Shown piece after piece: positions 2-63,644 of a DNA stretch of 64,000 nucleotides. This DNA comes from Bacteroidota bacterium (GTDB lineage Bacteria; Bacteroidota; Bacteroidia; Chitinophagales; Saprospiraceae): NCBI GenBank assembly GCA_020160935.1, contig JAIUPL010000010.1:62001-126000 (forward strand), in the 5' to 3' direction. The notes beneath the pieces are model-generated. The model was not told the origin of the DNA, searched no databases, and was given only the letters and a program-made list of their open reading frames with translations. A program made the translations under genes and the position numbers. Each line of letters opens with the position of its first letter. The stretch's first letter is position 1.

Positions 2-2905
2 TATTTCTATGGCGGTGGTGTTCAGCCCTCGTTTCAGGTACGGCTGACCGAACCTGCGAGCGGTGCGCTGATGAGTGATGTTTCCACTTCTTTTCAGGGC
101 ACATACACACAAGCCCAACAAGCGGCAGTCGTGGTGTACGAGAACAGGCCTTTTTTGCAATACTACCTCCAACAGGCTGCTACGGGCGAACCCTGGCGCG
201 TGTATCTTCTCTCAAAAGCCTTCCTGCACGCCGGTGCTGCCGAAGAAGCCGAGGCCTGGTTCGCCGCATACAGGGAAGCGCACCCGGGTTCGTCTTTTGC
301 ACGCTACCTGCTAGCCAAATGTTTCGACGCCAATGGCAAGGGCGAACGCGCCGAAGCATTGCTGAGTGAAATGGACACGGTGGCTACCCCGACGTTTGCG
401 GAGTACTATAACCGCTTTCAGAAAATCAACAAGGAACAGGAAGAGGTCAAATTTGTGAGCGCCCTGGAGCAACTACTGGGCATTTCGCCTGCCAACTGGG
501 AAATCGTGAATACCTACCTCGACTTTTTAAAAGAAAAAGGCAGAAAAGAACAGGTGAAAACCTGGGTGAATGATTTTTTAAAATATAATAATACGGAAAA
601 GTGGAAAAAAAGACTGGAAATATACTTAAAAGAAGAAAGTTACCGCCCCGAAACCTTCAAACCCGTTTCCGATAAACAGCGGGAGAAAAAATTCAAGGCA
701 GCGCGGAAAGAATTGAAAGAACATTTTTCGCTGATTTCATACGAGCAAATACTCGAATACTACAAATACCGCGAGCAGGAGAAAGACGTATTGGCCACCT
801 ACGATCAGATCATCGCCATGATGCCCTGGAATGGCGCTTATGCACTGTCGAAGGCGCGCTATTTGTTTGAAAAGGAACGACCTGCCGAAGCGCTCCAACT
901 CCTGAACACCCTTGTTCGTGAGTACCCCTATTCGCCGGCAATTTTTGAACTCATGGGCGATATTGCCATCGAGCAAAAAAACGAAGCGGAAGCCTTGCAA
1001 TGGTATCGGCAGGCCGAAAAAACGAGCGGAGAAAGTGCGCGTTATTCTGGTTTGCGCGAAAAAGTAGAAAAACTGGACAACAGCAAAAAATACTCAGGCT
1101 ATTTCCGCCCCGTGTCGCTGGCGCAGATCGCCAAAAAAACAGAAGGGCTGGAGAAATACGTGGATGAAGACGCCGTGGTGCAGTTCTATTCGGTACAGAA
1201 CACCTACCTGCGCGATGAACGCAAGGTCGAGTCGGCCCGGAAAGCCGTGATTCGCATCCTGAGCGATGCAGGCGCAAAAAACTGGACGGAAGCCGATCTG
1301 CGCCAAATTGGCCAGATTACCTCCGCCAAAGTGCTGAAAACAGACGGCAGCACCACCTCGCCGGAAATAGGCTACGGCATGGCCGTTTTCAAAAACCTGC
1401 AAGCAGGCGATGTGATCCTGGTAGAAGGCTCTACAGAAATCGGGGTATCGGATGAAATTGCCGGCGATTTCTGGGATCTACAGGTGCCCTCCTGGCAGGC
1501 TCCTGTGATGCGCTCGACAGCCGAACTGCTCGTGCCGGCAGGCCTCCCGCTGTATTTTGCGGCTAATCGGATTTCTTCAGAACCTGCTTCCTTACGCGAC
1601 ACCGGCGCTTTCTGCCTATACACCTGGGAATGGAAATCTATACCCAAAGTGGAAGTGGAAGAAGCATCGCCGGAAACGTATGACAATTTCGCATGGCTGA
1701 TGACCGGCAGCATGCAAGACTGGAGTCCGGTGGTGCAGTGGTACGAACGCCAGACTTACCGGCGCACGGAACCCAACTACGAAGTGATGGAAAAAGCGCG
1801 CAAAATGATTCACCCGGGCATGTCGGAAACGGACATTGTGGAAGCCCTGCACACTTTCGTGGTGCAGGAAATCAATTATTCCTATGTGCCGTTTCTTAAC
1901 AACAACTATGTACCCAAACGCCCCGGGGAAACCATTTCGGGCAAAGTGGGCGACTGCAAGGACGTAGCCACGTTGATGATCGCACTACTGCGTGCCTACA
2001 ATATTCCTGCCTGGTACACCCTGGTGAGCACACATACTTTTAGCAACCGCGACATTCGCCCGATCATTTATGCTTTCAACCACGCCATTGTGGCCTACCA
2101 ACTGAAAGACGGGCAATTGCGTTTTGCCGATCTCACGACAGACTATTTCCCGACGGGCATATTGCCTGCCGATGATTCGGATGCCTGGGCGCTGGTCATC
2201 CGGCCCGGTGAAAAGGAACTGCGCCGGTTGCCCAATGACGCCATCGACCCCCATACCACCGGAATAAATATCCGGGCTGAAGCCCTCATCGATGCAGAAA
2301 ACAACCTGCAGATCGACATGAAGGCTACGCATCGGGGCACTTCGGCGGGCCACTGGCGCGAGATGCTCAAACGCGCCAATGCTGCCGACAGGCGCCAACT
2401 TTTGTCGGAATACTTCAGCGGCGGCGTGCTGACCTATCTCAACCTCGATCATTTTGAATTCGACAACCTCGACAGCATCAATGCTCCCCTGAACAGCCGA
2501 GTACATATGACTGTGTACAACCCGATCGACCGGGTGAGGGGCCTGTACATCCTGCCTTTGCCGCTCCCATTGAGTACGCCTACCCAGAAGGTTTTGTTCA
2601 GCGACAAACGTTATAATGACCTCGATCTGGATGCGTTGTTCGAACTGGCGCCCGTACAGGAAACCATCGATCTTACCCTGCCACGCACCTATAAATTAGT
2701 AGAACTGCCTGCACCCAAACACATCACATCGCCATTTGGTCAATACACGCTCAGGGTAGAGTCCACCGCTACGGGAATTCGCATTCATCGGTCGGTACAA
2801 TTCACGCGCAGGTTTATTACCTACAGTGATTTTCAGGAAATGAAAAAGTTTTATCTGGGCATGCTGGATGCAGATGATACCTTGCTGGCACTGGAAGAAA
2901 ACTGA
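2..2905 (+). CDS. TPR / DUF3857 / transglutaminase-like protein, 5'-truncated by window edge
   Basis: The reading frame is open to the left edge, so the true start lies outside; the first internal ATG is at 71. About 967 residues are visible. The N-terminal third is helical and TPR-like (peptide pairs such as GAAEEAEAWFAAYREAHPG). A DUF3857-like beta region follows, then a transglutaminase-like core with the cysteine of GDCKD (codon at 1955), the histidine of FNHAIVAY and the aspartate of RFADLTTDY, which together form a plausible Cys-His-Asp triad. The C-terminus resembles the beta domain that follows transglutaminase cores in this family. Bacteroidota proteins of this type are usually exported; the signal peptide would be upstream. 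The substrate is unknown. A hairpin directly after the stop suggests that transcription ends there. Confidence 0.8.
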   Translation, partial: YFYGGGVQPSFQVRLTEPASGALMSDVSTSFQGTYTQAQQAAVVVYENRPFLQYYLQQAATGEPWRVYLLSKAFLHAGAAEEAEAWFAAYREAHPGSSFARYLLAKCFDANGKGERAEALLSEMDTVATPTFAEYYNRFQKINKEQEEVKFVSALEQLLGISPANWEIVNTYLDFLKEKGRKEQVKTWVNDFLKYNNTEKWKKRLEIYLKEESYRPETFKPVSDKQREKKFKAARKELKEHFSLISYEQILEYYKYREQEKDVLATYDQIIAMMPWNGAYALSKARYLFEKERPAEALQLLNTLVREYPYSPAIFELMGDIAIEQKNEAEALQWYRQAEKTSGESARYSGLREKVEKLDNSKKYSGYFRPVSLAQIAKKTEGLEKYVDEDAVVQFYSVQNTYLRDERKVESARKAVIRILSDAGAKNWTEADLRQIGQITSAKVLKTDGSTTSPEIGYGMAVFKNLQAGDVILVEGSTEIGVSDEIAGDFWDLQVPSWQAPVMRSTAELLVPAGLPLYFAANRISSEPASLRDTGAFCLYTWEWKSIPKVEVEEASPETYDNFAWLMTGSMQDWSPVVQWYERQTYRRTEPNYEVMEKARKMIHPGMSETDIVEALHTFVVQEINYSYVPFLNNNYVPKRPGETISGKVGDCKDVATLMIALLRAYNIPAWYTLVSTHTFSNRDIRPIIYAFNHAIVAYQLKDGQLRFADLTTDYFPTGILPADDSDAWALVIRPGEKELRRLPNDAIDPHTTGINIRAEALIDAENNLQIDMKATHRGTSAGHWREMLKRANAADRRQLLSEYFSGGVLTYLNLDHFEFDNLDSINAPLNSRVHMTVYNPIDRVRGLYILPLPLPLSTPTQKVLFSDKRYNDLDLDALFELAPVQETIDLTLPRTYKLVELPAPKHITSPFGQYTLRVESTATGIRIHRSVQFTRRFITYSDFQEMKKFYLGMLDADDTLLALEEN

Positions 2906-2916
2906 TCAGTTTTGAC

Positions 2917-2941
2917 AAAACCGGTGAAAAAATCCGGTTTT
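2917..2941 (+). terminator. Hairpin after the transglutaminase-like gene
   Basis: Inverted repeat AAAACCGG / CCGGTTTT with a 9-base loop, 12 bases after the stop at 2905. The right arm ends in four T. No longer T-run follows, so it is only a moderate terminator candidate. Confidence 0.5.
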
Positions 2942-3072
2942 ACACCCTGGTATCGGGAATGTTCGTATTTTTCATTTGGAATCAAATTTTCTTTCTTCTT
3001 TTGCAAAACAAACAAGGTTTTACAGAAACCCTGTTTTGAAAATTTTTTTCTGAAAAACAAGACCTAACCCGC

Positions 3073-5883
3073 ATGAAAAAAATGTACAAATTTTTGAAAT
3101 TCAATATCTTGTGCGTACTGTGTTTGGGAACTGCCGTATTGAGCGCCCAGGCTACACTTCGTGGAAAGGTAATGGATGCCGAAAGCGGAGAAGAACTCAT
3201 CGGTGCAGCAATTGTAATCGTGGGCAGCACTGGAGGAGCCGTTACCGACTACGAAGGCGCGTTCTCCTTAAAAGTGGATAAACTGCCTGTCACCCTCAAA
3301 ATTTCCTATACAGGCTATTCTGCCCAGGAAATTACGGTGACAGACCCTGCCCAGAAACTCGACGTCAGGCTGAGCACCAGTTCCATCGTCATAACCGAAG
3401 CCGTTGTACGGGGGCAGCGCATCGACGACAAGCAAAAAGCGGCGCCACTTACGGTGGAAAACCTCGATGCCATCGCCATCAAACAAACCGCTGCCGTGAG
3501 TTTCTACAACGGCCTTGGCAACTTGAAAGGCGTAGACCTCACCACGGCCAGCCTTGGTTTTACGGTGATCAACATGCGCGGTTTCAACTCCACGAGTCCT
3601 GTGCGCTCTCTGCAAATCATCGACGGTGTAGACAACCAGGCGCCCGGACTCAACTTCTCGCTCGGTAACTTTCTGGGCTGTAGCGAACTGGATGTCAACA
3701 AGGTCGACCTGATTGTGGGCGCCAGTTCGGCATTTTACGGCCCCAACGCTTTCAACGGCGTTATTTCCATGGAGTCGAAAAATCCGTTTATCAACCGTGG
3801 CCTTGCCGTATCGCTCAAAACCGGCGAACGCAACCTGCTGGAAGGCGCATTTCGTTATGCCGACGCTATAAAAAACAAGGCCGGACACCCATTTATGGCC
3901 TATAAACTCAATTTCTTCGGCCTGCGCGCCAACGACTGGGTGGCCGACAATTACAATCCGATTACGGAAGCCGAAGGCAACCAGATATTTACTGCCTCGC
4001 AAAATCCGGGTGGTTGGAATGCGGTAAATATTTATGGCGACGAATATTCAGGTCGTTTTGTATCCACCTACGATGCACGGGCGGGCCTGAACAGTTTTCA
4101 TCGTCAGGGTTATAAGGAAGAAGATATTGTTGATTATAACACTAAAAACGCGAAAGCCGGTGTGGCGCTGCATTTCCGCCTCAACCCGGCCAAGGAATTT
4201 GAATCGCCCGAACTGATCCTGGCTTCCAACTATGGCACTGGCACCACTGTGTATCAGGGTGATAACCGTTTCAGCCTGCGTGGCATCCAGTTCTACCAAA
4301 ACCGCCTGGAACTGCGCCAGAAAGACAAGTTTTTCCTGCGCTTTTATGCCACCAATGAAGATGCAGGCAAATCATATGACCCGTATTTTACGGCGCTGAA
4401 ACTTCAGGAAGCATCAAAAACGAACGATAAATGGCAGCAAGCCTATGAGTTCTGGTGGGTGCGCAACGACCTGGGCGCTGTTTTCAAAAAAATGAAAGAT
4501 GCCGGCTACGGACCGCCCGACAACTACGAGGCCCTGTTGCAGTGGCAACGCGACAATGCCGCTACACTGGCCGACTACCACCGCCAGGCGCAGGCATATG
4601 CCAATGAGGCCGATCACCCGAACGATTCGGGCGCCTTTTTTGAGCCTGGCACGGCTCGTTTTGACTCGCTGTTCAATGCCATTGTGAGCCGTAAAAACAA
4701 CAGCCGCGAAAATGGAACTTTGTTCTACGACAAATCGGCCCTGTACCACGCCCACGGTGAATACCACTTCAAGCCGCGTTTCCTGAACGACTGGGTGGTA
4801 GGCGCCAGCATGCGCATGTATCGCCCCAATTCGGACGGCACCATTTTCAGCGATTCGCTGGGCGCCCGTATCAAAAACTCGGAATGGGGCGCATATACCG
4901 GCGCAGAAAAGCAGGTCGGCGACTTCAAGTTTTCGGCTACCGTACGAGTGGATAAAAACCAGAATTTCGATTACCTGGCCACCCCGGCGGCCTCCATCGT
5001 GTGGACGCCCAAGGAAAACAACTACCTGCGTGTATCCTTTTCCTCGGCCATCCGCAATCCGACGCTCACCGACCAGTACCTCAACCTGAATGTTGGCCCT
5101 GCTACGCTGATCGGTAACCTGAATGGCTTCGACAGCCTCATTACGCTCGAATCCTTCCAGGCATACCGCGACGACAACAGCAAACCGCTGGTGTACCAAA
5201 ACGTAGCGCCTATACAGCCGGAAAAAGTAAAAACCTTCGAACTCGGGTATCGTACGACCCTGTTCAAGCGCATTTATGTGGATGCCGGATACTACTACAA
5301 CATCTACGACGACTTTATCGGATACAACATCGGACTCACGCTGCCCTTCGAACGGGTGGAAGTGTTTCCGGGTCAATACACCTATTTCCCTGATTTTGAC
5401 CGCTTGAAGGTGTACCGTGTAGCTGCCAATGCCTCGCAACGCGTTACTTCACAAGGGTTTGCGATCGGTTTGAACTACTATTTCCTCGACTATTTCATGC
5501 TGCAGGGCAACTACAGTTGGAACAAACTCATTACGGATGCTTCCGACCCGATCGTACCCGCTTTTAACACGCCGGAGCATAAGTTTAATATCGGATTTTC
5601 AGGACGCGATATCACTGCCTGGGGTAAAAACACATTCGGATTTACAGTGAACTACAAGTGGATCGACAATTTTACATTCGAGGGCTCGCCACAATTTACG
5701 GGCCTCATCCCATCGTATGATTTGCTCGATGCACAGGTGAATCTGACCATTCCGAAGATTCATAGCACGGTCAAACTCGGCGCCTCCAATGTGCTCAACA
5801 ACAAACAATTTCAAACGTACGGTGGGCCGCGTATTGGCCGAATGGCTTACCTTTCGCTCCTCTATGATTTTCGCGAAAAATAA
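3073..5883 (+). CDS. TonB-dependent outer-membrane receptor with CarboxypepD_reg-like domain
   Basis: This is a 936-residue protein with a signal peptide (basic MKKMYKFLKF, hydrophobic core, cleavage near LSAQA). Residues about 28-105 form the beta-sandwich CarboxypepD_reg-like domain (LRGKVMDAESGEELIGA). A plug domain (about 115-230) contains NMRGFNSTSPVRSLQIIDG and NKVDLIVGASSAFYGPNAF. The rest is a beta-barrel rich in aromatic and alternating residues, ending in a typical strand (MAYLSLLYDFREK). It would import an unknown ligand using TonB energy. No SusD-like partner is adjacent, so it is not a classic SusCD pair. The next gene, 87 bases downstream on the same strand, encodes a secreted esterase-like protein, but a functional link is only a guess. 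Confidence 0.9.
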   Translation: MKKMYKFLKFNILCVLCLGTAVLSAQATLRGKVMDAESGEELIGAAIVIVGSTGGAVTDYEGAFSLKVDKLPVTLKISYTGYSAQEITVTDPAQKLDVRLSTSSIVITEAVVRGQRIDDKQKAAPLTVENLDAIAIKQTAAVSFYNGLGNLKGVDLTTASLGFTVINMRGFNSTSPVRSLQIIDGVDNQAPGLNFSLGNFLGCSELDVNKVDLIVGASSAFYGPNAFNGVISMESKNPFINRGLAVSLKTGERNLLEGAFRYADAIKNKAGHPFMAYKLNFFGLRANDWVADNYNPITEAEGNQIFTASQNPGGWNAVNIYGDEYSGRFVSTYDARAGLNSFHRQGYKEEDIVDYNTKNAKAGVALHFRLNPAKEFESPELILASNYGTGTTVYQGDNRFSLRGIQFYQNRLELRQKDKFFLRFYATNEDAGKSYDPYFTALKLQEASKTNDKWQQAYEFWWVRNDLGAVFKKMKDAGYGPPDNYEALLQWQRDNAATLADYHRQAQAYANEADHPNDSGAFFEPGTARFDSLFNAIVSRKNNSRENGTLFYDKSALYHAHGEYHFKPRFLNDWVVGASMRMYRPNSDGTIFSDSLGARIKNSEWGAYTGAEKQVGDFKFSATVRVDKNQNFDYLATPAASIVWTPKENNYLRVSFSSAIRNPTLTDQYLNLNVGPATLIGNLNGFDSLITLESFQAYRDDNSKPLVYQNVAPIQPEKVKTFELGYRTTLFKRIYVDAGYYYNIYDDFIGYNIGLTLPFERVEVFPGQYTYFPDFDRLKVYRVAANASQRVTSQGFAIGLNYYFLDYFMLQGNYSWNKLITDASDPIVPAFNTPEHKFNIGFSGRDITAWGKNTFGFTVNYKWIDNFTFEGSPQFTGLIPSYDLLDAQVNLTIPKIHSTVKLGASNVLNNKQFQTYGGPRIGRMAYLSLLYDFREK

Positions 5884-5970
5884 CCCCCGATATTACGATA
5901 GAAATGAAACCATTTCGCGAATATTCCATTCCCGTTCTATTTCATCATTAACCTGCTAAACTTTTTAACC

Positions 5971-7524
5971 ATGCAATTATCAAAATTACCCATCCTTCTC
6001 CTCCTGTTGATAGCCATCGGAGCAAGGGTATCGGCCCAGAACCGCTACCTGGAGCCCGTGTTCTCGCAGGCGAGCAAAACGACAGCCCTCTACGGCGCCA
6101 ACTGGACGGTTCTGCCCCTCGCAGTACCAGGCGCACATACGCTCAAACAACCGCTGCAAATGCAGGTGTATCAACCAGTCGGCGATACCGAAACAGCACG
6201 TCCGCTCATCATCTACCTGCACACGGGTAACTTTTTCCCGTATCCGCAAAACGGCTCCTGCGGCGGTACCTTGTACGACTCCTCCAATGTAACCTTTGCA
6301 ACCCGCCTCGCGCAAATGGGTTATGTAGTGGCGGTAGCCGACTACCGCCTCGGCTGGAACCCATTCGCTTCACAGGAATTGGTTCGCCGTTTTACGCTGA
6401 TCAACGCTGCCTACCGTGGTGTGCAGGACGTTCGTACCTGCATTCGCTACTTCCGCAAAACGGTCGCATTGGATGGCAATCCTTGGGGTATCGACCCAAG
6501 CAAAATCGTTGTTTGGGGACAGGGTACCGGCGGCTACCTGTCGCTGGCTACTGCCTATCTGGATACATTCGGAGAAATCTACACCACGGCTGACCCGAAT
6601 AAATTCAAACTTCCAGTGGCTCCGGGCGTATTCCTTCCGATGGTACAGGAAGCGTACAATGGCGACATTGAAGGCGTACAAGCTGCTCCTGGCGTAGTGG
6701 ACGCTACCTACAACGCTATCACAGGTATTCCGCTCGGCGACACGCTGTACACACAAAACCACCCGGGATACAGTTCCGAATTCTCTTTGGCTGTAAATAT
6801 GGGTGGCGCGCTGGGCGATAGTTCCTGGATGGATGCAGGCGACGTTCCGCTCATCTCCTACCACGTTCCTTCTGACTTTTTTGCACCATGCGGAACTGAC
6901 ATCCTGAATGTGCCTACTACTACCGGCCCTCAGCCAGTTGTGGAAGTATCCGGTTCTTGCGACATGCAGGAAATTGCTGACGACCTGGGCTTGAACACCA
7001 TTTTTAGCACTATTCCGGCAGGTTTCGACCCTTATGGTGCAGTTTCGGGCAGTTCGCATAGCGGCTTCTATCCTTTTGTGGGAACACCGAATAACACCTC
7101 TGCTCCATGGGAATGGACGCCAACGGACTTCTCTCCCGCGCCGGCTCCAACAGCAGGCTGTAATACGGATGCTGCTGTAGCACATGCCTATATCGACACC
7201 ATTATCGGTTTCTTTGCTCCACGCGCTTGCGTTGTACTCGGTCTGGGTTGCAACTTCGTGGCTACACACGAACTCAACGAACAAGACCTGGGTCTGCAGG
7301 TAGCACCGGTGCCAAGTTCCGATGCTGTAACCTTCACTACGAAAGAAGCGCCGATCCGCCACATCTATGTGTACGACCTGAACGGCCGTCTGGTGAAAGC
7401 ACATACCAGCATCGACAGCAATGTGTTCCAGATGCAGCGCAACAGCCTGACCAACGGTATGTATATCGCAGAACTTCGTTTTGACAACGGTTTTGTGAAA
7501 CGCAAAATCGTGTTCAGTAACTAA
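5971..7524 (+). CDS. Secreted carboxylesterase-like alpha/beta-hydrolase with T9SS sorting domain; nucleophile serine missing
   Basis: This is a 517-residue protein. Signal peptide MQLSKLPILLLLLIAIGARVSAQ. The alpha/beta-hydrolase region has the oxyanion-type segment LIIYLHTGNFFPYPQNGSC and an elbow reading VVWGQGTGGYLSLATAY. Carboxylesterases normally read G-x-S-x-G here; this protein has Gly in place of the serine and Thr one position on. Unless another residue serves, the enzyme is probably inactive or altered. The last ~75 residues (LQVAPVPSSDAVTFTT..., ending in ELRFDNGFVKRKIVFSN) form a T9SS type A sorting domain, so export and surface attachment or release by the type IX system are expected. 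A good terminator hairpin follows at 7548. Confidence 0.8.
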   Translation: MQLSKLPILLLLLIAIGARVSAQNRYLEPVFSQASKTTALYGANWTVLPLAVPGAHTLKQPLQMQVYQPVGDTETARPLIIYLHTGNFFPYPQNGSCGGTLYDSSNVTFATRLAQMGYVVAVADYRLGWNPFASQELVRRFTLINAAYRGVQDVRTCIRYFRKTVALDGNPWGIDPSKIVVWGQGTGGYLSLATAYLDTFGEIYTTADPNKFKLPVAPGVFLPMVQEAYNGDIEGVQAAPGVVDATYNAITGIPLGDTLYTQNHPGYSSEFSLAVNMGGALGDSSWMDAGDVPLISYHVPSDFFAPCGTDILNVPTTTGPQPVVEVSGSCDMQEIADDLGLNTIFSTIPAGFDPYGAVSGSSHSGFYPFVGTPNNTSAPWEWTPTDFSPAPAPTAGCNTDAAVAHAYIDTIIGFFAPRACVVLGLGCNFVATHELNEQDLGLQVAPVPSSDAVTFTTKEAPIRHIYVYDLNGRLVKAHTSIDSNVFQMQRNSLTNGMYIAELRFDNGFVKRKIVFSN

Positions 7525-13246: not shown

Positions 13247-16186
13247 TTACCCCAGACCCAGCAGCCCTTTCAGCGCATCATAATACACCGATGCGGATAC
13301 ATTCACCGCAATGCCTTCCGCATTTTTATCGATCCATTTCAGAATGGACCTGCCCAGCCCTGTTTTTTCCTCGGGACTATCCGGTTCGGGTAGTGCATCT
13401 ACAAAAGCAGTCAGAGCGGCTTTTGTGTCAGCCGACATTTGTTCCAGCATTTCTTTCAAGGCATCTACATCGGATGTCTTGACCGTGTTGGCGATCTGGA
13501 TGCTGGGCTTGTTTTCAATATTGACCTGAAAAACAGGGTTGAAATCCATGCCGCCAAAACCCGGTTCGTGCCTTCTTCCGCCGGCCAGTGCGGGTTGCAG
13601 CGCCATGATTTCGCCGCTTTGGTACACACCTTCCAGCAGTTGCACCACCGGCACGTTGTCTTCCAGGCGATTACAAAATGCCTTGCCTTTGGTAAGTTTT
13701 ACCAGTTCGGACAGTTTGTAGGAAAAAGGATCCTCGCTGTTTTTGCATACCTCACAATTGCAAGGCACCCATTCCTCAAACTTGATGTTTTTGAACCACT
13801 TCTGGTGGATGGATTGCACTTCCCGGCGCACCAATTCCAGCGCGTATTTACGGTTGCGGAAGGGCTCGTTTTCCTCCAGCACTTCAATCACAATCTGTTT
13901 TAAACCACTTTTGGATTCGCCGTCGTCTTCGTACATGAGCAGGCGGCAGAGGGTGCCTTCGCGTGTGATATTTAACACAGCGCCCTTTTTCCAGACGATT
14001 TCCACGCCCTCTACTTTTTCCAGGTGTGCGCTCAGGCGTACAATCAGGCGCGACATCAGGCCTTTGGGCATGATCGGGTATTCGTAGCGGAATTGCAGGG
14101 CGCCCACGTGTTTGTACCAGGCATATTGCTCGGGGCGGTTGTCGGGCAGCAGTTGGGCCGCCACGTAATGTCCTTTTTCGTCCGTTTCGTAACAGATATC
14201 GAAGTTGTTTTTCGACATCAGTTTGAGGATTTTCTGGGCGTCGGTGCTGGAATACCCTTTCCCGCGCAGGATATGGAAAATATCCTCGGTGGTGAATTTT
14301 CCTCTCTGAGTTTCCTTGATCAGGTCGCTTTTGAGCGTGGTGTACACGCCTTCCACGGCCCATTCCGGCCGTAGAATGACCACATCGACAAGATCCGGGT
14401 CATTTTGAAAATGCAACAATGCGCCGAGTTGGTGCAGGTAGCCGGTCATGGTAAACTGGTCTATTTCTTCCGTCACCTCATATTCGCTGCAAATTTCATG
14501 CAGGCGTAGCGTCGTGATGTAGTTATGTTCCTGTCCTTCTTCGCGCAGGGCATCGCGGATAGGGCCCCATTGTTTGGGCAGGATGTTTTTTACAATTGGC
14601 AATTCGGCCAGTCGACGTGTTACCGCTTCGTGCAGGCATTCCCAGCGTTTGTCGTTGTCGGCCAGGTCGACTTCCAGAAACTGGTAATCGAAATCGGATT
14701 CGTAGAGTTTCAGCAAATCCTGGTACTGTGGCATGCCTGTGCCGCCTTTCTTTTTGTTGAGAACCAGCAGGAGCGATACTTTGTCTTCTTCCCGTTCCCG
14801 GCCCAGCAGGCTGATGATTTTGAACCAGTAGGCGAGATTGGGTGCTTCGGCCCGGGCTTCCATCATCAGCACGTACAGGGCTTTGGGTGAGAGGAAAAAC
14901 TGGTGGGTCATGTACTGTAATTCCTGTCCGCCGAAGTCCCAGAGGTTGGCGCGGAAGTCGTAGCCGATTTTTAACCCTTCGTGGATATTGATACCGTGCG
15001 TTTCGTCGGTGGGCTCATTCAGCGGATCGAACGCCGGATCGATCAGTTTTTTGAAAAGGGTGGTTTTGCCGGTTTTGCCTTCTCCGACGATAAGAAGTTT
15101 GGCTTCGTTGAGGGTGGCTGCGCCTTGTTTTTCAAGTTGTTCCCAGTAGGCCAGGATGGCTTCGTTGCCTTGTTTGGCTACTTCAACCGGCGGGTTGGTG
15201 AGGGGGCAGTTTTTTAAACTATTAATTTTAACAAGTATACCTGTTGTGCCTAATTCTTCATAAATTTCTTCGCCTTCCCATCTAATATAAATATCCATCT
15301 TAATTTGCTGACGAAGTGGGGTAAGGTTGTTGATCTGTGTATTGAAGCATTCGAGTTTTTGTAAGTTTATGAGGTTTTGCAGGGGCGTCAGATCGTTAAT
15401 CTGCGTGGAGCTGCAGTCGAGTATTTGTAAGTTTATGAGGTTTTGGAGGGGCGTCAGATCGTTGATCTGCGTGGAGTAGCAGTTAAGAACTTGTAAGTTA
15501 AGGAGGTTTTGGAGCGGCGCGAGGTCGTTGATCTGAGTGGAGGAGCAGAAGAGTTGTTGTAAGTTAAGGAGGTTTTGGAGCGGCGCGAGGTCGTTGATCT
15601 GCGTGGAGGAGCAGTAGAGTATTTGTAAGTTGAGGAGGTTTTGGAGCGGGGCGAGGTCGTTGATCTGCGTGGAGTTACAGTAGAGTATTTGTAAGTTTAT
15701 GAGGTTTTGCAGGGGCGTCAGGTCGTTGATCTGCGTGGAAGAGCAGTAGAGTATTTGTAAGTTTATGAGGTTTTGCAGGGGCGTCAGATTTTTGATCTGC
15801 GTGGAAGAGCAGTAGAGTATTTGTAAGTTTATAAGGTTCTGCAGAGGCGTCAGGTCTTGCAATTTTTCAATTTTTTTTTCTCTTTCTCTATAACGTTGTG
15901 AAATTACCAAGTGCCGCAACGCTGCACATTTTTCAATCCCTTTCAGGGAAACCAATCTGTTGGGTTCACCTTTGTTTTGGCTGTACTGCAAGGCGCCTTT
16001 TTTTTCTTTTGAGTCGTACTCCCACCAGTCATCACTCAATATCAACGTCTCCACCCACACCAATTCCTTGATCTCCACCGGCAATTTCGTCAATCCGCAC
16101 CTGCCCAAATCCAGGTACGTAGCGTCTTCGCCGCGTTCGTGTTTTGCTTTGTTTTCGGCTATGAGTTGCAGGGCCAGTTCCGACAT
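13247..16186 (-). CDS. ROCO-family protein: LRR + Roc GTPase + COR
   Basis: This is a 979-residue protein. Residues about 1-110 are an LRR-like cap and 112-287 are eight 22-residue leucine-rich repeats (LTPLQNLINLQILYC...). The Roc Ras-like GTPase follows, with P-loop GEGKTGKTTL (368-377), switch DFGGQE and a G4-like NKKK in place of NKxD. A COR domain follows (AVEGVYTTLKSDLI..., GYSSTDAQKILKLM). The C-terminal ~100 residues contain DVDALKEMLEQMSADTKAAL and end in a small-residue tail (ALKGLLGLG). Bacterial ROCO proteins dimerise through COR in a nucleotide-dependent way; some are linked to conflict or signalling, and the role here is unknown. The gene stands alone between two inverted palindromes. 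The N-terminal LRRs suggest ligand sensing. Confidence 0.9.
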   Translation of the reverse strand: MSELALQLIAENKAKHERGEDATYLDLGRCGLTKLPVEIKELVWVETLILSDDWWEYDSKEKKGALQYSQNKGEPNRLVSLKGIEKCAALRHLVISQRYREREKKIEKLQDLTPLQNLINLQILYCSSTQIKNLTPLQNLINLQILYCSSTQINDLTPLQNLINLQILYCNSTQINDLAPLQNLLNLQILYCSSTQINDLAPLQNLLNLQQLFCSSTQINDLAPLQNLLNLQVLNCYSTQINDLTPLQNLINLQILDCSSTQINDLTPLQNLINLQKLECFNTQINNLTPLRQQIKMDIYIRWEGEEIYEELGTTGILVKINSLKNCPLTNPPVEVAKQGNEAILAYWEQLEKQGAATLNEAKLLIVGEGKTGKTTLFKKLIDPAFDPLNEPTDETHGINIHEGLKIGYDFRANLWDFGGQELQYMTHQFFLSPKALYVLMMEARAEAPNLAYWFKIISLLGREREEDKVSLLLVLNKKKGGTGMPQYQDLLKLYESDFDYQFLEVDLADNDKRWECLHEAVTRRLAELPIVKNILPKQWGPIRDALREEGQEHNYITTLRLHEICSEYEVTEEIDQFTMTGYLHQLGALLHFQNDPDLVDVVILRPEWAVEGVYTTLKSDLIKETQRGKFTTEDIFHILRGKGYSSTDAQKILKLMSKNNFDICYETDEKGHYVAAQLLPDNRPEQYAWYKHVGALQFRYEYPIMPKGLMSRLIVRLSAHLEKVEGVEIVWKKGAVLNITREGTLCRLLMYEDDGESKSGLKQIVIEVLEENEPFRNRKYALELVRREVQSIHQKWFKNIKFEEWVPCNCEVCKNSEDPFSYKLSELVKLTKGKAFCNRLEDNVPVVQLLEGVYQSGEIMALQPALAGGRRHEPGFGGMDFNPVFQVNIENKPSIQIANTVKTSDVDALKEMLEQMSADTKAALTAFVDALPEPDSPEEKTGLGRSILKWIDKNAEGIAVNVSASVYYDALKGLLGLG
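15326..15853 (-). repeat. Eight near-identical 66-base LRR-coding units
   Basis: Eight tandem 66-base units encode 22-residue LRRs of the ROCO protein. Adjacent units differ at only a few codons (LINLQ/LLNLQ, LTPL/LAPL, YCSSTQ/FCSSTQ/DCSSTQ), implying recent expansion or homogenisation. Confidence 0.9.
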
Positions 16187-58090: not shown

Positions 58091-59581
58091 ATGCCCCGTT
58101 CCATTTCCTTGCTTTTGTTGCTTTTTCTGCCATTGTTGAGCGTAAGTAAATACCACTCTGCACGCCCTGGAGGGAAAGACTACGCCTTGTTTTTTGCAGT
58201 AGAAACCTATGAAAATAAAAGTGCCTGGAAGGATTTACCCGGCCTCATCGATGAATGTGAAGCCATTCGCAAAGACCTGATAGAACGATACGGCTTCTCA
58301 TCGGAATCCAAAGTAGTGCACAATCCTACCCTGAACGACATCGCTGCCGAACTGGCTCGCTGGCGCAGCCGCGAGTATGGCCCCGATGATCAATTACTGA
58401 TCTTTTTTAGCGGACATGGCCAGTTTTTAGACGACGTACAGGAAGGCTTTTTTATTCCCAGCAATGGCAAATCAAAAGATGCCGACTTTATTAGCCGCAA
58501 CTGGTATTCCCTGCTCACCCTGCCACGCCACGTGACCACGATCAAATGCCGACACATCCTGCTGGCCATCGACGCGTGTTACAGTGGTACCATCGACAGC
58601 CAGGTAGCGCTGAAAGATGAAAACGAGGAATGGGCACAGCCGGAAAACAACGGCGATGCACAGTTTCATCAATACGTACACGATCTGCTGGCAAACAAAA
58701 GCCGCCTCCTTATGACCTCCGGCGGGAAAACCCGCACCAAACACCCTTCGGATTTTGTACGTTGGTTTCGCGAAGCACTGGCTACGCTGGGCGGGAAAGA
58801 CAGGCTTCTTCGGCCTGCCGATATCGAAGAGCGATGGCCGGCAAGTACCATTAGCAGGCCACTCTCGGGAACGTTTGAAGGACATGAAGCAGGAGGTAAT
58901 TTTTTGTTTGTATACCAGCCGAAAGCCGCCCCTGTGAAGGCTTCTTCTGCACCCGACTACGACGAAGACGGCACGCCTGACGCCACGGATAAATGCCCCA
59001 CAGAAGCTGGCCCTGCCGCCACTAAAGGCTGCCCGGACCAGGATGGCGACGGGGTGGCGGACAAGTTTGATCGTTGTAAAACGGAAAAAGGGCCGGTTTC
59101 GAATGACGGGTGTCCGGTTTCCACTGAACCTAAGCCTGTAGCCCCAACTACCACTAGAGGCGAAAAAACATTTCGTATCTTACTATTGGAGTGGCCATCA
59201 CATTTAGATATAAACGTTGGGAAGTTTGCACTCCTAAGTGATGTCAAAGAAGAGGTGATTGATGGAAAATATTATTACTTCACTGGTCAGTATTCTAATT
59301 TAAGGGATGCAGATGCTATGCTTTTAGAAATAAAAAACATGGGATTTAAAACGGCAAAAGTTGTTGATTCTAAAATATTTCAAATACTTTTATTGTCATG
59401 GCCAAGTCGTTTAGATATGAAGTCGGGGCAATTAAGTTTGTTATCCAATGTTAGAGAGGATTTGGTTGACGGAAAATATAATTATTATATCGGACCATAT
59501 TTAGATAAAAATGAGGCAGATGCGGTGCTTCCTCATTTATTAAACTTAGGCTTTAAAAACGCTAAAGTTGTTCATGAATAG
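58091..59581 (+). CDS. Secreted caspase-like (C14) protein with TSP3 linker and two SPOR-like repeats
   Basis: This is a 496-residue protein. Signal peptide MPRSISLLLLLFLPLLSVS. The caspase-like domain (about 28-270) has catalytic His109 in FFSGHGQF and Cys163 in AIDACYSGT, so it should be an active orthocaspase-type protease. Residues about 288-340 are thrombospondin-type-3 calcium-binding repeats (DYDEDGTPDATDKCPTEAGP, DQDGDGVADKFDRC). Two ~68-residue SPOR-like repeats end the protein (ILLLEWPSHLDINVGKFALL and ILLLSWPSRLDMKSGQLSLL); SPOR domains usually bind denuded peptidoglycan. From about 59160 the coding sequence becomes clearly richer in A/T than the first two thirds, suggesting the tail was acquired separately. 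It is paralogous to the next gene. Confidence 0.85.
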   Translation: MPRSISLLLLLFLPLLSVSKYHSARPGGKDYALFFAVETYENKSAWKDLPGLIDECEAIRKDLIERYGFSSESKVVHNPTLNDIAAELARWRSREYGPDDQLLIFFSGHGQFLDDVQEGFFIPSNGKSKDADFISRNWYSLLTLPRHVTTIKCRHILLAIDACYSGTIDSQVALKDENEEWAQPENNGDAQFHQYVHDLLANKSRLLMTSGGKTRTKHPSDFVRWFREALATLGGKDRLLRPADIEERWPASTISRPLSGTFEGHEAGGNFLFVYQPKAAPVKASSAPDYDEDGTPDATDKCPTEAGPAATKGCPDQDGDGVADKFDRCKTEKGPVSNDGCPVSTEPKPVAPTTTRGEKTFRILLLEWPSHLDINVGKFALLSDVKEEVIDGKYYYFTGQYSNLRDADAMLLEIKNMGFKTAKVVDSKIFQILLLSWPSRLDMKSGQLSLLSNVREDLVDGKYNYYIGPYLDKNEADAVLPHLLNLGFKNAKVVHE

Positions 59582-59773
59582 TGATAATATTGATATTGTT
59601 ACAAATGCAAGTTTTATTCCTCTTGATCTTCACTAAATATGTACACAGACATGGAAGTCATTTGAAAACTATAAGCCCATATCATCGCCTCAACGACGCA
59701 TGTCTACTGTCATATTGGTGCCCAGTCCAACAGTGAGGTGCATTATGCGGATAGTCATTAAATGGAAAATTCC

Positions 59774-59781
59774 TACTTTCG
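59774..59781 (+). promoter_or_regulatory. -7-like box (TACTTTCG) of second caspase-like gene
   Basis: Same octamer and the same 23-base distance to the ATG as in the first caspase-like gene, which also supports ATG 59805 as the true start. Confidence 0.5.
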
Positions 59782-59804
59782 CCTACGCATCAACTTCCCA
59801 ACCC

Positions 59805-61688
59805 ATGCCCCGTTCTCTTCCCCTCCTCGTTCTTCTCTTCCTCCCACTCCTGAGCGCGCAGCACCCGGCTCTGTCCACCCGCCCCGGCGGCAAAGACTAC
59901 GCTCTGTTTTTCGCCGTAGAAACCTACGACCATAGCAGTTCCTGGAAAAGCCTGCCCGGCCTGACCAAAGAAGTGGAATCCATCGCCGCCGACCTGCGCG
60001 ACCTGTACGGTTTTGAAACGAAAGTGATCAAAAACCCCACGCTGGCCGAGATAGACGCCGAACTGGCTGCCTGGCGGGCACGCAAATTCGGCCCAGACGA
60101 CCAGGTAATGGTATATTTCAGCGGTCACGGGCAATTCATCGACGACCGGCGTCAGGGCTATTTCATTCCGAGCGACGGCAAGGGCTCTTCGGGCTCCGTG
60201 TATGAGCGACAGTGGCTGCCGTACCTCGACCTGCGTCGGCTGGTGACGGGTATCGGTTGCCGCCACATCCTGCTGGCACTCGACGCCTGCTTTAGTGGCA
60301 CGGCCGATGATGAGGTAGTATTCAAGGACGAAACAGAAGAATGGGCCGAACCCACCGGCGCTGCCGACCAGCAATGGAAGCAGCAGATACACGACCAGTT
60401 GCGCTGCCAAAGCCGCATTTTGCTCACTTCCGGCGGAAAAACCAAGACAGAAAATCCTTCCAAATTTGCGGCTTCTTTTCGAAAGGCATTTTCCAAACAA
60501 GGCGGGGCCGACAAAATTGTACGCCCTTCGGATATTATGGAAGAGTGGTACGGTCTGGCTATTCCGCCACACTCAACGACGTTTGAAGGGCATGAGAGTT
60601 GTGGAAATTTTTTGTTCGTGTACCAGCCGAAATCTACGCCTGTACCGCCTCCCGCTTTTCCCGACTACGACGAAGACGGTACCCCTGACGCCACCGATAA
60701 ATGCCCCACAGAAGCAGGCCCTGCCGCCACCAAAGGCTGCCCGGACCAGGATGGCGACGGGGTGGCGGACAAGTTTGACCGGTGTGTGACGGAAAAAGGA
60801 CCGGCTTCGAATGATGGGTGCCCGGTGACAATACCGGCGCCTGCCCCTAAAAATGTGCCGGCTGCAGCATACGACCCCATGGCCAGTGACATGGTGGATA
60901 TAACAGGCGGAGAATTTGCCATGGGGAGCACAGAAGGCAGCGAGGATGAGAAACCAGTACATACTGTTGAAATATCATCGTTTCGGATGTCGAGGTATGA
61001 AATAACCAATGCGCAATTCTGCAATTTTTTGAATGAAAAAGGCAACCAAACGGAGGGTGGGGTGGAATGGATCAACCTGGACGGGAAATGGGATGATGAA
61101 CGCTGCCGGATCAGCAAAAGCGGGACAAAGTTTGTGGTAGCAAGCGGTTATGAAAACTACCCGGTGCTCTATGTGTCGTGGTATGGCGCTGTGGCCTACT
61201 GTGTGTGGCTGGCCGAAAGAACGGGCAAAAACTATCGATTACCAACGGAGGCGGAGTGGGAATATGCCGCTGCAAACGGGTACAGGCACACCAAATACAG
61301 TTGGGGCGATGGTAATCCCTCTGGTAGAAAAGGCGGTAACGTTGCAGATGAAACAGCAAAAAAAAGGTACAGCAACTGGACTATATTTGAGGATTATACC
61401 GATGGATACGTCTATACGTCTCCAGTCGGCTCTTTTGACCCCAATGTGCTCGGACTTTATGACATGAGTGGCAATGTATGGGAATGGTGTGCCGACTGGT
61501 ACAATGACAAATATTATGAAACGAGCCCCCGTAAAGACCCTCCAGGCCCTACGACGGGCTCTTCCCGGGTTTGTCGCGGCGGGTCGTGGGTCAACTACGA
61601 TAACCTTTGTCGCTCTGCGATCCGTGTCAACTTCAGTCCTACGGATCGTAACGTAGATGTTGGTTTTCGGGTAGCGCAGGGCAAATAA
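59805..61688 (+). CDS. Secreted caspase-like protein with TSP3 linker and FGE/C-type-lectin-fold domain (candidate DGR variable protein)
   Basis: The start is ATG 59805 (MPRSLPLLVLLFLPLLSAQ), giving 627 residues. The caspase-like domain has catalytic His108 (YFSGHGQF) and Cys162 (ALDACFSGT). TSP3 repeats follow and are very similar in DNA to those of the preceding gene. From about residue 360 comes a formylglycine-generating-enzyme/sulfatase-modifying domain (MVDITGGEFAMGSTEGSED, YRLPTEAEWEYAAANGYRH, GLYDMSGNVWEWCADWYND). It ends RVCRGGSW...CRSAIR...VGFRVAQGK, the C-type-lectin-type end used by DGR variable proteins. Residues 596-606 differ from the downstream adenine-rich copy only through adenine positions, apart from the final codon. 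It is probably a surface or periplasmic protease with a ligand-binding head. A terminator follows. Confidence 0.85.
   Translation: MPRSLPLLVLLFLPLLSAQHPALSTRPGGKDYALFFAVETYDHSSSWKSLPGLTKEVESIAADLRDLYGFETKVIKNPTLAEIDAELAAWRARKFGPDDQVMVYFSGHGQFIDDRRQGYFIPSDGKGSSGSVYERQWLPYLDLRRLVTGIGCRHILLALDACFSGTADDEVVFKDETEEWAEPTGAADQQWKQQIHDQLRCQSRILLTSGGKTKTENPSKFAASFRKAFSKQGGADKIVRPSDIMEEWYGLAIPPHSTTFEGHESCGNFLFVYQPKSTPVPPPAFPDYDEDGTPDATDKCPTEAGPAATKGCPDQDGDGVADKFDRCVTEKGPASNDGCPVTIPAPAPKNVPAAAYDPMASDMVDITGGEFAMGSTEGSEDEKPVHTVEISSFRMSRYEITNAQFCNFLNEKGNQTEGGVEWINLDGKWDDERCRISKSGTKFVVASGYENYPVLYVSWYGAVAYCVWLAERTGKNYRLPTEAEWEYAAANGYRHTKYSWGDGNPSGRKGGNVADETAKKRYSNWTIFEDYTDGYVYTSPVGSFDPNVLGLYDMSGNVWEWCADWYNDKYYETSPRKDPPGPTTGSSRVCRGGSWVNYDNLCRSAIRVNFSPTDRNVDVGFRVAQGK
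61560..61680 (+). repeat. DGR variable repeat (VR) candidate
   Basis: This is the last ~120 bases of the FGE-domain coding sequence. Positions 61560-61621 align without gaps to 61811-61872. There are 7 mismatches, at 61590, 61591, 61596, 61599, 61605, 61606 and 61621, each opposite an A in the downstream copy. They change Asn codons of the template to Val, Tyr, Asp and Leu codons. The 3' half (to VGFRVAQ) has no counterpart in the downstream copy. Confidence 0.8.
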
Positions 61689-61727
61689 CCCTTTTTACTT
61701 TTACCCTTTGTCTTTTACTTTTTGACA

Positions 61728-61757
61728 TTCGGCGCGAAGCGCCGGAAATTTTTTTGA
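61728..61757 (+). terminator. Intrinsic terminator of the second caspase-like gene
   Basis: ATTCGGCGC / GCGCCGGAAAT with a three-base loop, followed by a run of T. It is preceded by a single arm of CTTTTAC-type words (61690-61725). Confidence 0.75.
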
Positions 61758-61810
61758 AAAAACAGGTTTTTAAGAAATTCTGCGAGTATGCAGGATAGGG
61801 CCATACGAAG

Positions 61811-61886
61811 TCTTCCCGGGTTTGTCGCGGCGGGTCGTGGAACAACAACAATAACAATTGTCGCTCTGCGAAGCGCCACAATACAG
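61811..61886 (+). repeat. DGR template repeat (TR) candidate, 3'-incomplete
   Basis: 30 bases identical to the VR (TCTTCCCGGG...GGGTCGTGG) are followed by AACAACAACAATAACAAT, then TGTCGCTCTGCGA identical again. Read in the VR frame it gives GGSW, six Asn, CRSA, which is the standard look of a template. After 61872 the match is lost and a TGA appears, so the 3' end carrying the usual initiation-of-homing sequence is missing. It is noncoding and lies past the terminator. Confidence 0.75.
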
Positions 61887-61933
61887 TTTGATTTGAAATG
61901 AAGTATCGTATTTTTACCACAAAGACCTCCAAC

Positions 61934-62923
61934 ATGAAACAATATTTCCAGTTCCTTTTTCTGCTTCTTTTACTTCCCCTTTCCCTCTCCGCCCAGCAAA
62001 ACCTCACCGCCTCTCAACCCTTCTTCAACGAAGCCGCCCACTCCTACCAGAAATGGCTCGACGGCTGTGGCCTGGGCCCGGCGCTGCAAGTGCGCTCTGC
62101 GGAGGTAAAAAACGACACCCTATTGGTGGTATTCCTCGGCTTTCAGGCTGCCGACCCCGATTCTGCCCGGGCGGTGTGGAATCAATTGCGCGCCGATTTT
62201 GCCCGAAAAACGGGTGGTGATACCCTCGAAAATCGCCTGTTCGAAAAAGTAACCTGGTATTTCGAAGTGCCGCCCCGGCAGGCGCGGCTGTACCTGCGCG
62301 ACAGTTACACCGGCCCGAAAGCCCTGTGCTGGGAAGCGCGCGTGGTACCCGGCAATAAAAACAGCCGCCCCGTTTTTCAGCAAAAAGACCTCGACTGCGG
62401 CTTCAAAAGCCAGGAGTTCAACGTACACATCGGTTCGCAGGATTTGCCGGGATTGCGCCCACCTTCTGCAGCCGATTTTCAGAAAAAAATGGATAAAAAA
62501 ACGGTGTTTTCCCGGCTGAAACCCTGGCTGAGTACCCGTTACCAGAAACCCCAGCCCGACGGAGGCTGGTCGCATATCCGCTTCACCGACGAATGGCAAA
62601 CCCTGAAATTCGAAGTCGACGACCTGCGCCGCGAAGTGATTTCAGACGCTTCCAGTTCCTGGTTGTGCGAGGTGTTGTGCCAATGCGCCACCTGTTTGCC
62701 TTACGAAAAATTAGAGGTGGTTATCAAATACGAAGTGCCTGATGCGGTATCCGGCGGCTTCTCACTTTCTGCTACTATTTCCGCCAAATACGGCTCGGGT
62801 ATCTGGAAACCGCGCGGTGGCGGCTGGCACGATCTCGACGACGAACCTGCCAAAAAAGCCTTGCTCAAAACCTACGGCGAATTGCTCATGGTTGATCTCA
62901 AACGTTTTCTGCTGCAACCCTGA
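61934..62923 (+). CDS. Secreted protein of unknown function
   Basis: The start is set at ATG 61934 (MKQYFQFLFLLLLLPLSLSAQ, signal peptide), giving 329 residues. The mature protein is rich in Trp, Arg and Cys pairs (SYQKWLDGCGLGP, PKALCWEARVV, WLCEVLCQCATCLPYEKLEV) with mixed alpha/beta character. No family is recognised. It ends one base before the ATG of the EAD11-like membrane protein, so the two are coupled. It follows the DGR-like template and may belong to the same functional island. Confidence 0.65.
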   Translation: MKQYFQFLFLLLLLPLSLSAQQNLTASQPFFNEAAHSYQKWLDGCGLGPALQVRSAEVKNDTLLVVFLGFQAADPDSARAVWNQLRADFARKTGGDTLENRLFEKVTWYFEVPPRQARLYLRDSYTGPKALCWEARVVPGNKNSRPVFQQKDLDCGFKSQEFNVHIGSQDLPGLRPPSAADFQKKMDKKTVFSRLKPWLSTRYQKPQPDGGWSHIRFTDEWQTLKFEVDDLRREVISDASSSWLCEVLCQCATCLPYEKLEVVIKYEVPDAVSGGFSLSATISAKYGSGIWKPRGGGWHDLDDEPAKKALLKTYGELLMVDLKRFLLQP

Positions 62924-62924
62924 T

Positions 62925-63644
62925 ATGACATCTGCCACAAAAGAAACGCTTCGCGAACTGATTGGCCGCGACGAACTGGAAGAAACTACAGCCCAACTGC
63001 TGGCCGTTGCCGATCGCACGGGGCTGCCCGATCTTCGCAGTGAGGTCATCATCATTTCCGGGCGACTGGAAGAATGGAAAAAAGGCCGCCTTCGCGGCGA
63101 CCAGTCAGACGAACGATTGACAGAACTTCGCAACGGTATACGATCCGCCTTGCTGACCCTGGCGGAGTCGCTGCCGGAAACAATGTCTGCCGATACCAAA
63201 GCCCTCCGCCTGGCAGGTATGCCGGAAACGCGCTTCAAGGCCATCATTTTCTGGATGATGCTGGCAGGCAACGCTGCCGCATTCGTATGCCTTTTTGTGC
63301 TCGGTTCGGGTTCGGGTGCTTTCACGCCTTCCGAGACGGCTACTACCTGCGCGTTGTTGCTGTCGCCTTTAGCCGCCTATTTTTCTGTGATGTTCAGCGA
63401 GGTGATCGAGCGGCGCAGCGGCGAACTGCTATCGAGCGCCGTGGCCAATAAACGCGTCAATCGTCGCTTCCAGATTGTTTCCTTATTGGTGTTGAGCGCC
63501 TATTTTTTTCTGGTTTGTTTTCTCATGCTTTACCGTTCACAAGTCGACTTCAGCGAGTTCACCAAGTGGCTGGCCGTGCTGGAAGGCGGACTGGGAATTT
63601 TTGTAGCACAGGTGGTGCACGCGTTGTTTAAAACGGGAAAGTAG
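62925..63644 (+). CDS. EAD11-like adaptor domain protein with C-terminal membrane segments
   Basis: The start is set at ATG 62925 (MTSATKETLRELIGRDELEE), giving 239 residues; there is one base between it and the preceding stop. Residues 5-85 match the pattern of effector-associated domain 11: LRELI...LEETTAQLLAVA, RSEVIIISGRLEEW, then LTELRNGIRSALLTLAESLP. In bacterial conflict systems EADs are death-fold-like adaptors that link sensors to effectors such as caspase-like proteases. The rest has three hydrophobic segments (FWMMLAGNAAAFVCLFVLG, CALLLSPLAAYFSVMF, LLVLSAYFFLVCFLMLY). It is probably an inner-membrane component working with a partner carrying the same EAD, not seen in this window. 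Confidence 0.7.
   Translation: MTSATKETLRELIGRDELEETTAQLLAVADRTGLPDLRSEVIIISGRLEEWKKGRLRGDQSDERLTELRNGIRSALLTLAESLPETMSADTKALRLAGMPETRFKAIIFWMMLAGNAAAFVCLFVLGSGSGAFTPSETATTCALLLSPLAAYFSVMFSEVIERRSGELLSSAVANKRVNRRFQIVSLLVLSAYFFLVCFLMLYRSQVDFSEFTKWLAVLEGGLGIFVAQVVHALFKTGK

What the first reader, a model, noticed from the sequence alone, without database searches (positions are those of the whole stretch)
61560..61886. Adenine-specific variation between the end of a caspase-FGE gene and a downstream copy: a DGR VR/TR pair
Seen directly: 61560-61621 and 61811-61872 align over 62 positions. All 7 mismatches lie opposite the 14 adenines of the downstream copy and none opposite its 48 other bases. 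By hand the chance of that placement is about 7 in a million. The downstream copy reads six Asn codons (AAY) where the gene has V N Y D N L, inside the GGSW...CRSA context of a C-type-lectin/FGE end. Adenine-directed mutagenic retrohoming with AAY-rich templates is the known mark of diversity-generating retroelements. The template lacks its 3' part and no reverse transcriptase or Avd gene is in the window.
Basis: partly seen in the sequence, partly recalled or inferred. Interest (0 to 1): 0.92.

Follow-up and report, generated by a model that had tools for sequence, protein, structure and literature searches.

The report
Broken hypermutation cassette beside caspase gene
The end of a bacterial caspase-sensor gene was rewritten by a known kind of adenine-targeting mutation machine whose template survives only as a fragment next to it and whose enzyme genes are missing here, so this looks like a recently disabled copy of a known system.

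Summary
The DGR reading holds. In a congener (G009) three related gene ends vary pairwise at 9, 7 and 5 of the 12 columns where the window copy has A, but at 2, 1 and 1 of 42 others. Two intact congener cassettes have the same order: target gene, stem-loop, template, Avd, RT. The genome carries three other DGRs (C17, C29, C51); none has this template, and their templates differ from this VR at 26-28 non-A positions. Here the clean template stops after 61 nt; sequence resembling the next gene's leader starts 20 nt later. No RT or Avd was found on this contig. Best explanation: a recently disabled DGR whose recipient side (VR, stem-loop, open caspase-FGE gene) survives and whose donor side was lost. 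Incomplete DGR loci and caspase/C-type-lectin DGR targets are both in print, so this is a new member of a known kind. Present activity cannot be settled without reads.

The parts
59805..61688 (+). Target gene: signal-peptide-like start (by eye), caspase domain, thrombospondin-3-type linker, C-terminal FGE/C-type-lectin-fold domain; reading frame open
   Evidence: ORF 59700-61688; the start at 59805 is my choice; Pfam PF00656 2.8e-12, PF02412 1.1e-5, PF03781 1e-65; SGHG and DACFSG motifs (that these are the caspase dyad motifs is recalled)
61560..61685 (+). Variable repeat (VR) at the 3' end of the target gene; only 61560-61620 has a clean TR counterpart in the genome
   Evidence: whole-VR variability inferred from the G009 relatives
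61656..61685 (+). Presumed IMH region (conserved GFRVA... end of VR)
   Evidence: inference by position; no variation among the three G009 gene ends in the columns that match about 61660-61685
61730..61744 (+). Stem-loop after the stop codon (6-bp stem, GAA loop), possibly the DGR target-recognition hairpin
   Evidence: a stem of 6-8 bp with GAA loop follows 8 of 10 VR-gene ends examined (the 2 without are C51 targets); hairpin role in BPP-1 from PMC3240598, passages read, one of them from the abstract
61811..61871 (+). Template repeat (TR) remnant: 5' part only, six AAY codons
   Evidence: 85% and 84% matches over 55 nt to RT-linked TRs in G014:C7 and G007:C146
61872..61891 (+). Junction: 20 nt, the first 9-10 perhaps altered template, the rest unassigned
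   Evidence: matches to other templates run on to 61880-61881, but the tail test was not significant; leader-like sequence starts at 61892
61934..62923 (+). Next gene, unknown function, not part of the DGR; its leader now abuts the TR remnant
   Evidence: no Pfam family; homologues in G030 (80%) and G009 (69%)

Best explanation
A diversity-generating retroelement of the FGE-target type once sat here as target gene - stem-loop - TR - Avd/RT. RT copied the TR RNA with errors at adenines and the cDNA replaced the VR, changing residues of the FGE (C-type-lectin fold) domain of an apparently exported caspase protein. A deletion then removed the 3' half of the TR, the spacer, Avd and RT up to the next gene's leader. 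The VR still agrees with the 61-nt remnant at all 48 non-adenine positions, so the loss is recent relative to point mutation there. The target is now presumably frozen in sequence. Shown: A-limited TR/VR relation, A-limited variation among relatives, conserved order in two intact cassettes, absence of RT, Avd and a second TR copy for this pair in the assembly. Inferred: the order of events, loss by deletion, absence of present activity, sensor function.
For: pair; G009 gene ends vary at the window TR's A columns; with four RT-linked TRs as yardstick 24-25 of 32 polymorphic columns at A, p 1e-10 or below each; window TR resembles RT-linked TRs; 17 of 22 TR-pattern hits in 42 genomes lie near an RT; order, and VR-stop-to-TR distance 140 here, 133 G011, 106 G007:C118, 148 C29; no RT, second TR copy or Avd for this pair; leader-like sequence from 61892; 3 of 1000 shuffles score as high; spacer model scores at C17 and C29, not at this locus.
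Against: The genome is 97.9% complete in 51 contigs, so a remote intact TR/RT could be missing. The spacer model covers one sub-clade: it also missed RT-linked loci C51, G014:C7, G007:C146, G025 and G028. Matches to other templates run about 10 nt past the clean end; if those bases are template too, they carry non-A differences from the VR, so the remnant may be decaying and not only cut. The two intact cassettes share the FGE part of the target only, no caspase part was found there. The order is not universal: C17's template lies on the other strand. A join error in assembly at the TR cannot be excluded without reads. The A-limited pair alone rests on 6-7 differences.
Confidence: 0.82

Rival explanations
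1. The VR is still diversified: an intact cognate TR and RT exist in unassembled sequence, on an unbinned replicon, or in other cells of the population, and the window shows a structural variant.
For: Dore et al. 2024 (PMC10907252, passages read) report loci with disrupted and intact variants side by side and trans-diversified targets. G009 carries three VRs of this family and no cognate full TR turned up there (its other DGR, at C526, has a different template). Recipient-side parts (VR, stem-loop) are intact.
Against: No second TR copy in the assembled genome. A 30-nt TR pattern with up to 3 mismatches hits 12 places in 10 of 398 family genomes; only the window's own copy has fewer than 2 mismatches (hits in G133, G194, G243 and G355 were not opened). 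Viral contigs: 0, exact pattern, near records may be left out. The three RT-linked templates here are not cognate.
Confidence: 0.13
2. The VR is a remote target of one of the genome's three other DGRs (C17, C29, C51).
For: All target FGE gene ends of the same style; the C51 TR is the best other match to the window copy (74%).
Against: C51, C17 and C29 TRs differ from the window VR at 45, 44 and 47 positions, of which 28, 26 and 26 are not at A; the trans targets described in PMC10907252 match at all non-A sites (passage).
Confidence: 0.02
3. Ordinary local duplication of a gene end with neutral divergence.
For: Only 6-7 differences; such repeats occur.
Against: All differences in the 61-62 nt at A, no such excess in the D1/D2 controls; the same columns vary in another species; the AAY run matches RT-linked TRs.
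Confidence: 0.01
4. Assembly artefact: the TR is intact in the organism and a false join cut it.
For: TR/VR repeats and mixed VR alleles are hard to assemble (recalled); VRs at C17 and C29 carry frame-shifting gaps relative to their TRs.
Against: The break is followed within 20 nt by sequence like the leader of the same gene in G009; each of the three DGR RTs of the genome has a template of its own nearby.
Confidence: 0.04

Closest known systems
Avd-type DGR with FGE/C-type-lectin target, e.g. the intact cassettes at G011:C19 and G007:C118 in the same genus, and this genome's C29
   Same: Target gene with 3' VR, GAA-loop stem-loop, AAY-rich TR at similar distance; A-limited mismatches
   Different: Window locus lacks a full TR, spacer, Avd and RT; targets of G011 and G007:C118 share the FGE part only, no caspase part found
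Incomplete DGR loci of Thiohalocapsa PB-PSB1 (Dore et al. 2024, PMC10907252; passages read)
   Same: DGR loci that lost RT or TR while targets remain; targets are putative conflict-system sensors
   Different: There, MITE-like arrays or transposons did the damage and intact variants were seen; here no mobile element was recognised by eye in the junction (not searched for) and no reads are available
Orthocaspase-type C-type-lectin DGR proteins of cyanobacteria (PMC7517822; passages read)
   Same: Orthocaspase-like N-terminus with a DGR-diversified C-type-lectin C-terminus
   Different: Here the protein starts with a signal-peptide-like stretch (by eye) and has a thrombospondin-3 linker; other phylum (Bacteroidota-like by gene content, inferred)
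Treponema denticola variable protein 1 (PDB 2y3c)
   Same: DGR variable protein (recalled); sequence match E 6e-22 to the window's FGE domain
   Different: Enzyme-type FGEs match better by sequence (6muj, 1.2e-43); no binding shown for the window protein

Membership tests
Diversity-generating retroelement (complete cassette) | TR/VR pair whose mismatches fall at TR adenines | tested here: met
   (met over the 61-62 nt remnant; beyond it not)
Diversity-generating retroelement (complete cassette) | VR at the 3' end of a C-type-lectin-fold gene | tested here: met
   FGE to residue 659 of 662; 2y3c by sequence; fold itself not predicted
Diversity-generating retroelement (complete cassette) | DGR-type reverse transcriptase linked to the pair | tested here: not met
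   4 RTs in the genome, none on this contig
Diversity-generating retroelement (complete cassette) | Accessory protein Avd linked to the pair | tested here: not met
   over cut-off only at C17 and C29; 3 weaker matches, none on this contig
Diversity-generating retroelement (complete cassette) | Full-length TR with IMH* end and downstream spacer RNA | tested here: not met
   spacer model negative here (model reaches one sub-clade only)
Diversity-generating retroelement (complete cassette) | Stem-loop downstream of VR | tested here: met
   61730-61744; 41 nt after the stop codon, function not tested
Diversity-generating retroelement (complete cassette) | Ongoing adenine-directed variation in the population | not testable with these tools
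   one genome per species, no reads

The most novel reading that the evidence does not exclude
Donor halves of DGRs are repeatedly lost in this genus while the target halves (VR, stem-loop, open sensor gene) are kept, which either fixes a useful caspase sensor after a phase of diversification or leaves a recipient site that a newly acquired cognate TR-RT could use again. Cases in hand: the window, G016:C113 (RT body apparently gone, TR and VR kept, 12 of 12 VR/TR differences at A) and possibly G009.
Probability: 0.15. Interest if true: 0.6.

Novelty: new member of a known kind. Interest (0 to 1): 0.33.

Why it matters
It documents, in a genus with many DGR RTs, a diversified and apparently exported caspase-FGE protein whose mutation machinery is missing, with related intact cassettes and variable relatives for comparison. 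If losses like this prove selected and not neutral, they would say when hypermutating immune-like sensors are worth freezing. As it stands it extends known observations of incomplete DGR loci.

Tried and rejected
Trans service by the genome's own DGRs: rejected by 26-28 non-A mismatches. A remote VR of the C51 DGR at C34: 28 mismatches, 13 at A, so at most an old paralogue. Homology of the junction to TR tails: lowest shuffle fraction 0.092 among six tails tried, inconclusive. Synteny with G030 to see the undisturbed site: its contig ends at the neighbouring gene. Naming the organism through genome contigs: the tool's note says near records may be left out and no congener was recognised in the list; its 80 loci were not examined. 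Viral contigs pattern: 0. G165 (same family, other genus): related caspase-FGE genes; no TR or RT recognised by eye near the matching one in the list of ORFs of 150 aa or more and 1.7 kb of sequence. TR-pattern hits G031:C709 (2) and G014:C16 are gene ends, not separate TRs. Paper searches: relic/truncated TR terms, 0 papers; orphan + variable repeat, 1, not opened; Saprospiraceae + DGR, 0 (the family name was my guess); DGR + degenerate/pseudogene terms, 8, none on this by title. No structure prediction was run. One search used a caspase query in a wrong frame; that part is void and was redone.

Full report
Observation. The repeat is real and its mismatches are all opposite adenines of the downstream copy: 7 of 62 positions, 14 A, p 7.0e-6; or 6 of 61 if the end mismatch is not counted, p 3.1e-5. 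Past that end the copies part: forced on to 71 positions there are 11 mismatches, 8 of them at 17 A, p 2.5e-4. Two other diverged repeats in the same window show no such preference (D1: 43 mismatches in 261, 12 at 63 A or 9 at 60 A by direction; D2: 40 in 134, 15 at 41 A or 4 at 30 A).

Independent test. A congener, G009, carries three gene ends of the same style (RVCRGGSW...CRSA...GFRVAQ.K) at C63, C457 and C589. Over the 54 columns 61817-61870 they differ in pairs at 9, 7 and 5 of the 12 columns where the window copy has A and at 2, 1 and 1 of the 42 others. One search had 57 columns, the last two beyond the clean remnant: 11, 9 and 7 of 14 against 2, 1 and 1 of 43. Counted as columns: 9 of 11 polymorphic columns within 54 fall on the 12 A columns, p 2.0e-6. 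With templates that sit beside RTs (G011, G006, C17, C51) as yardstick over 117 columns, 24, 24, 25 and 24 of 32 polymorphic columns fall on A (28-34 A columns), p 1e-10 or below each. So the template read from one species predicts which positions vary in another. Between window and G009 both classes differ (6-9 of 14 at A, 6-7 of 43 elsewhere), as expected for different species. A caspase part was found beside the C63 gene end only; none in the stretches held for C457 and C589.

Genome context. The window is G000:C27:62001-126000. The genome has four RVT_1 proteins. Three (C17, C29, C51) have an AAY-rich template nearby and FGE target genes. C17 and C29 also have Avd above NCBIfam's cut-off, C51 an HRDC protein next to its RT. 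The fourth (C20) lies beside Cas1 and what looks like a CRISPR array (repeats read), and its best PADLOC models are retron- and CRISPR-type RTs as I read their names. None lies on C27. The window template has no second copy; the next best match besides its own VR is the C51 template at 74%. The three templates differ from the window VR at 44-47 positions, 26-28 of them not at A, so they are not cognate.

Relatives. A genus search (42 genomes incl. own) with an alignment of eight DGR RTs, three of them from this genome, finds RTs at E 1e-20 or better in 20; G009 is not among them, but its C526 contig has an RT piece at its end and a template of another style. A template-like pattern gives 22 hits in 17 genomes. 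By position 17 lie near an RT on the same contig. Five do not: the window; G016:C113; G014:C16 and two at G031:C709, which are gene ends. In G016, which has no RT, an HRDC-like frame runs straight into an RT-tail-like stretch, and TR and VR remain with 12 of 12 differences at A. G011:C19 has the closest RT-linked cassette by target gene (65% identity over the linker and FGE part): target gene, stem-loop, template, Avd on the other strand, RT. G007:C118 has the same order. No caspase part was found at either.

Layout of the window locus. After the stop codon comes a 6-bp stem with a GAA loop at 61730-61744. Such stems (6-8 bp) follow 8 of 10 VR-gene ends examined; the 2 without are C51 targets. 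A hairpin 3' of VR is needed for efficient retrohoming in phage BPP-1 (PMC3240598, passages); that this stem does the same is inference. The template pattern starts 140 nt after the stop (133, 106 and 148 in G011, G007:C118 and C29; at C17 the template is on the other strand). The clean copy ends at 61871; matches to other templates run on to 61880-61881 with more differences. From 61892 the sequence aligns with the leader of the same neighbouring gene in G009 (3 of 1000 shuffles score as high). The stretch between matches no template tail significantly. In G009:C63 the target gene is followed by a stem-loop and a 21-nt piece that matches the window template at 20 positions, better than 1000 of 1000 shuffles; its sister loci C457 and C589 have none.

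Missing parts. In BPP-1 the spacer 3' of TR recruits RT-Avd and primes cDNA within the TR's 3' end (PMC12875486, passages read). A model of the spacer core from seven relatives, run on 22 sources, finds 8 matches: its seven training loci and G001. In the whole own genome only C17 and C29 score well; three further matches have E 6.5-7.5, one of them elsewhere on C27, outside the window. The model misses other sub-clades, so this negative is weak alone; but the next start codon is 62 nt from the remnant's end, against 127 positions in the model. Avd above cut-off occurs only at C17 and C29.

Mechanism and status. The VR was written by adenine-mutagenic retrohoming from this template when it was whole; the donor side was then lost, most simply by deletion. 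All 48 non-A positions of the 61-nt remnant still agree, so the break is young relative to point mutation. Present inactivity is inferred from missing parts and was not measured. The target gene is open and keeps SGHG and DACFSG motifs (their catalytic role is recalled). The start looks like a signal peptide by eye. A role as a hypermutated sensor in a cell-death or defence response is a hypothesis carried over from related systems.

Known and new. Incomplete DGR loci are described for Thiohalocapsa (PMC10907252, passages). Orthocaspase-type DGR targets are described for cyanobacteria (PMC7517822, passages), and DGR-diversified FGE-type domains in conflict systems (PMC7159879, passages). Searches returned no paper on this family, the last judged by title; the library holds open-licence papers only. 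I file the locus as a truncated member of a known kind and not as a complete DGR.

Noticed in passing
L009 (G000:C17) and L010 (G000:C29): The cis VRs of the two Avd-type DGRs carry gaps relative to their templates (1 nt and 8 nt), which shift the reading frame at the gene end: retrohoming errors or assembly of mixed alleles.
   Followed up: partly
L132 (G001:C556), about 4720-4850: The FGE gene runs straight into a template-like copy with spacer and RT downstream, as if VR and TR had recombined and dropped the sequence between.
   Followed up: partly
L127 (G016:C113), minus strand: A DGR with VR, HRDC-like frame, TR and a 3' region like that of RT-linked relatives, but the RT body missing: a second apparent RT loss in the genus.
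   Followed up: partly
window 58091-59581 and 59805-61688: Two neighbouring caspase genes share the caspase and linker (84% over 261 nt) but end differently: SPOR-type end in the first, FGE with VR in the second, like a module swap at the linker.
   Followed up: no
window 62925-63644: A gene with effector-associated domain EAD11 (Pfam PF19964) two genes downstream of the VR gene, in line with a conflict-system setting.
   Followed up: no
L011 (G000:C20) 1500-6234: CRISPR-like repeat array (by eye) followed by Cas2-like (by eye), Cas1 and an RT of CRISPR/retron type.
   Followed up: partly
window 15324-15856: Eight 66-nt tandem copies, 86% matches.
   Followed up: no
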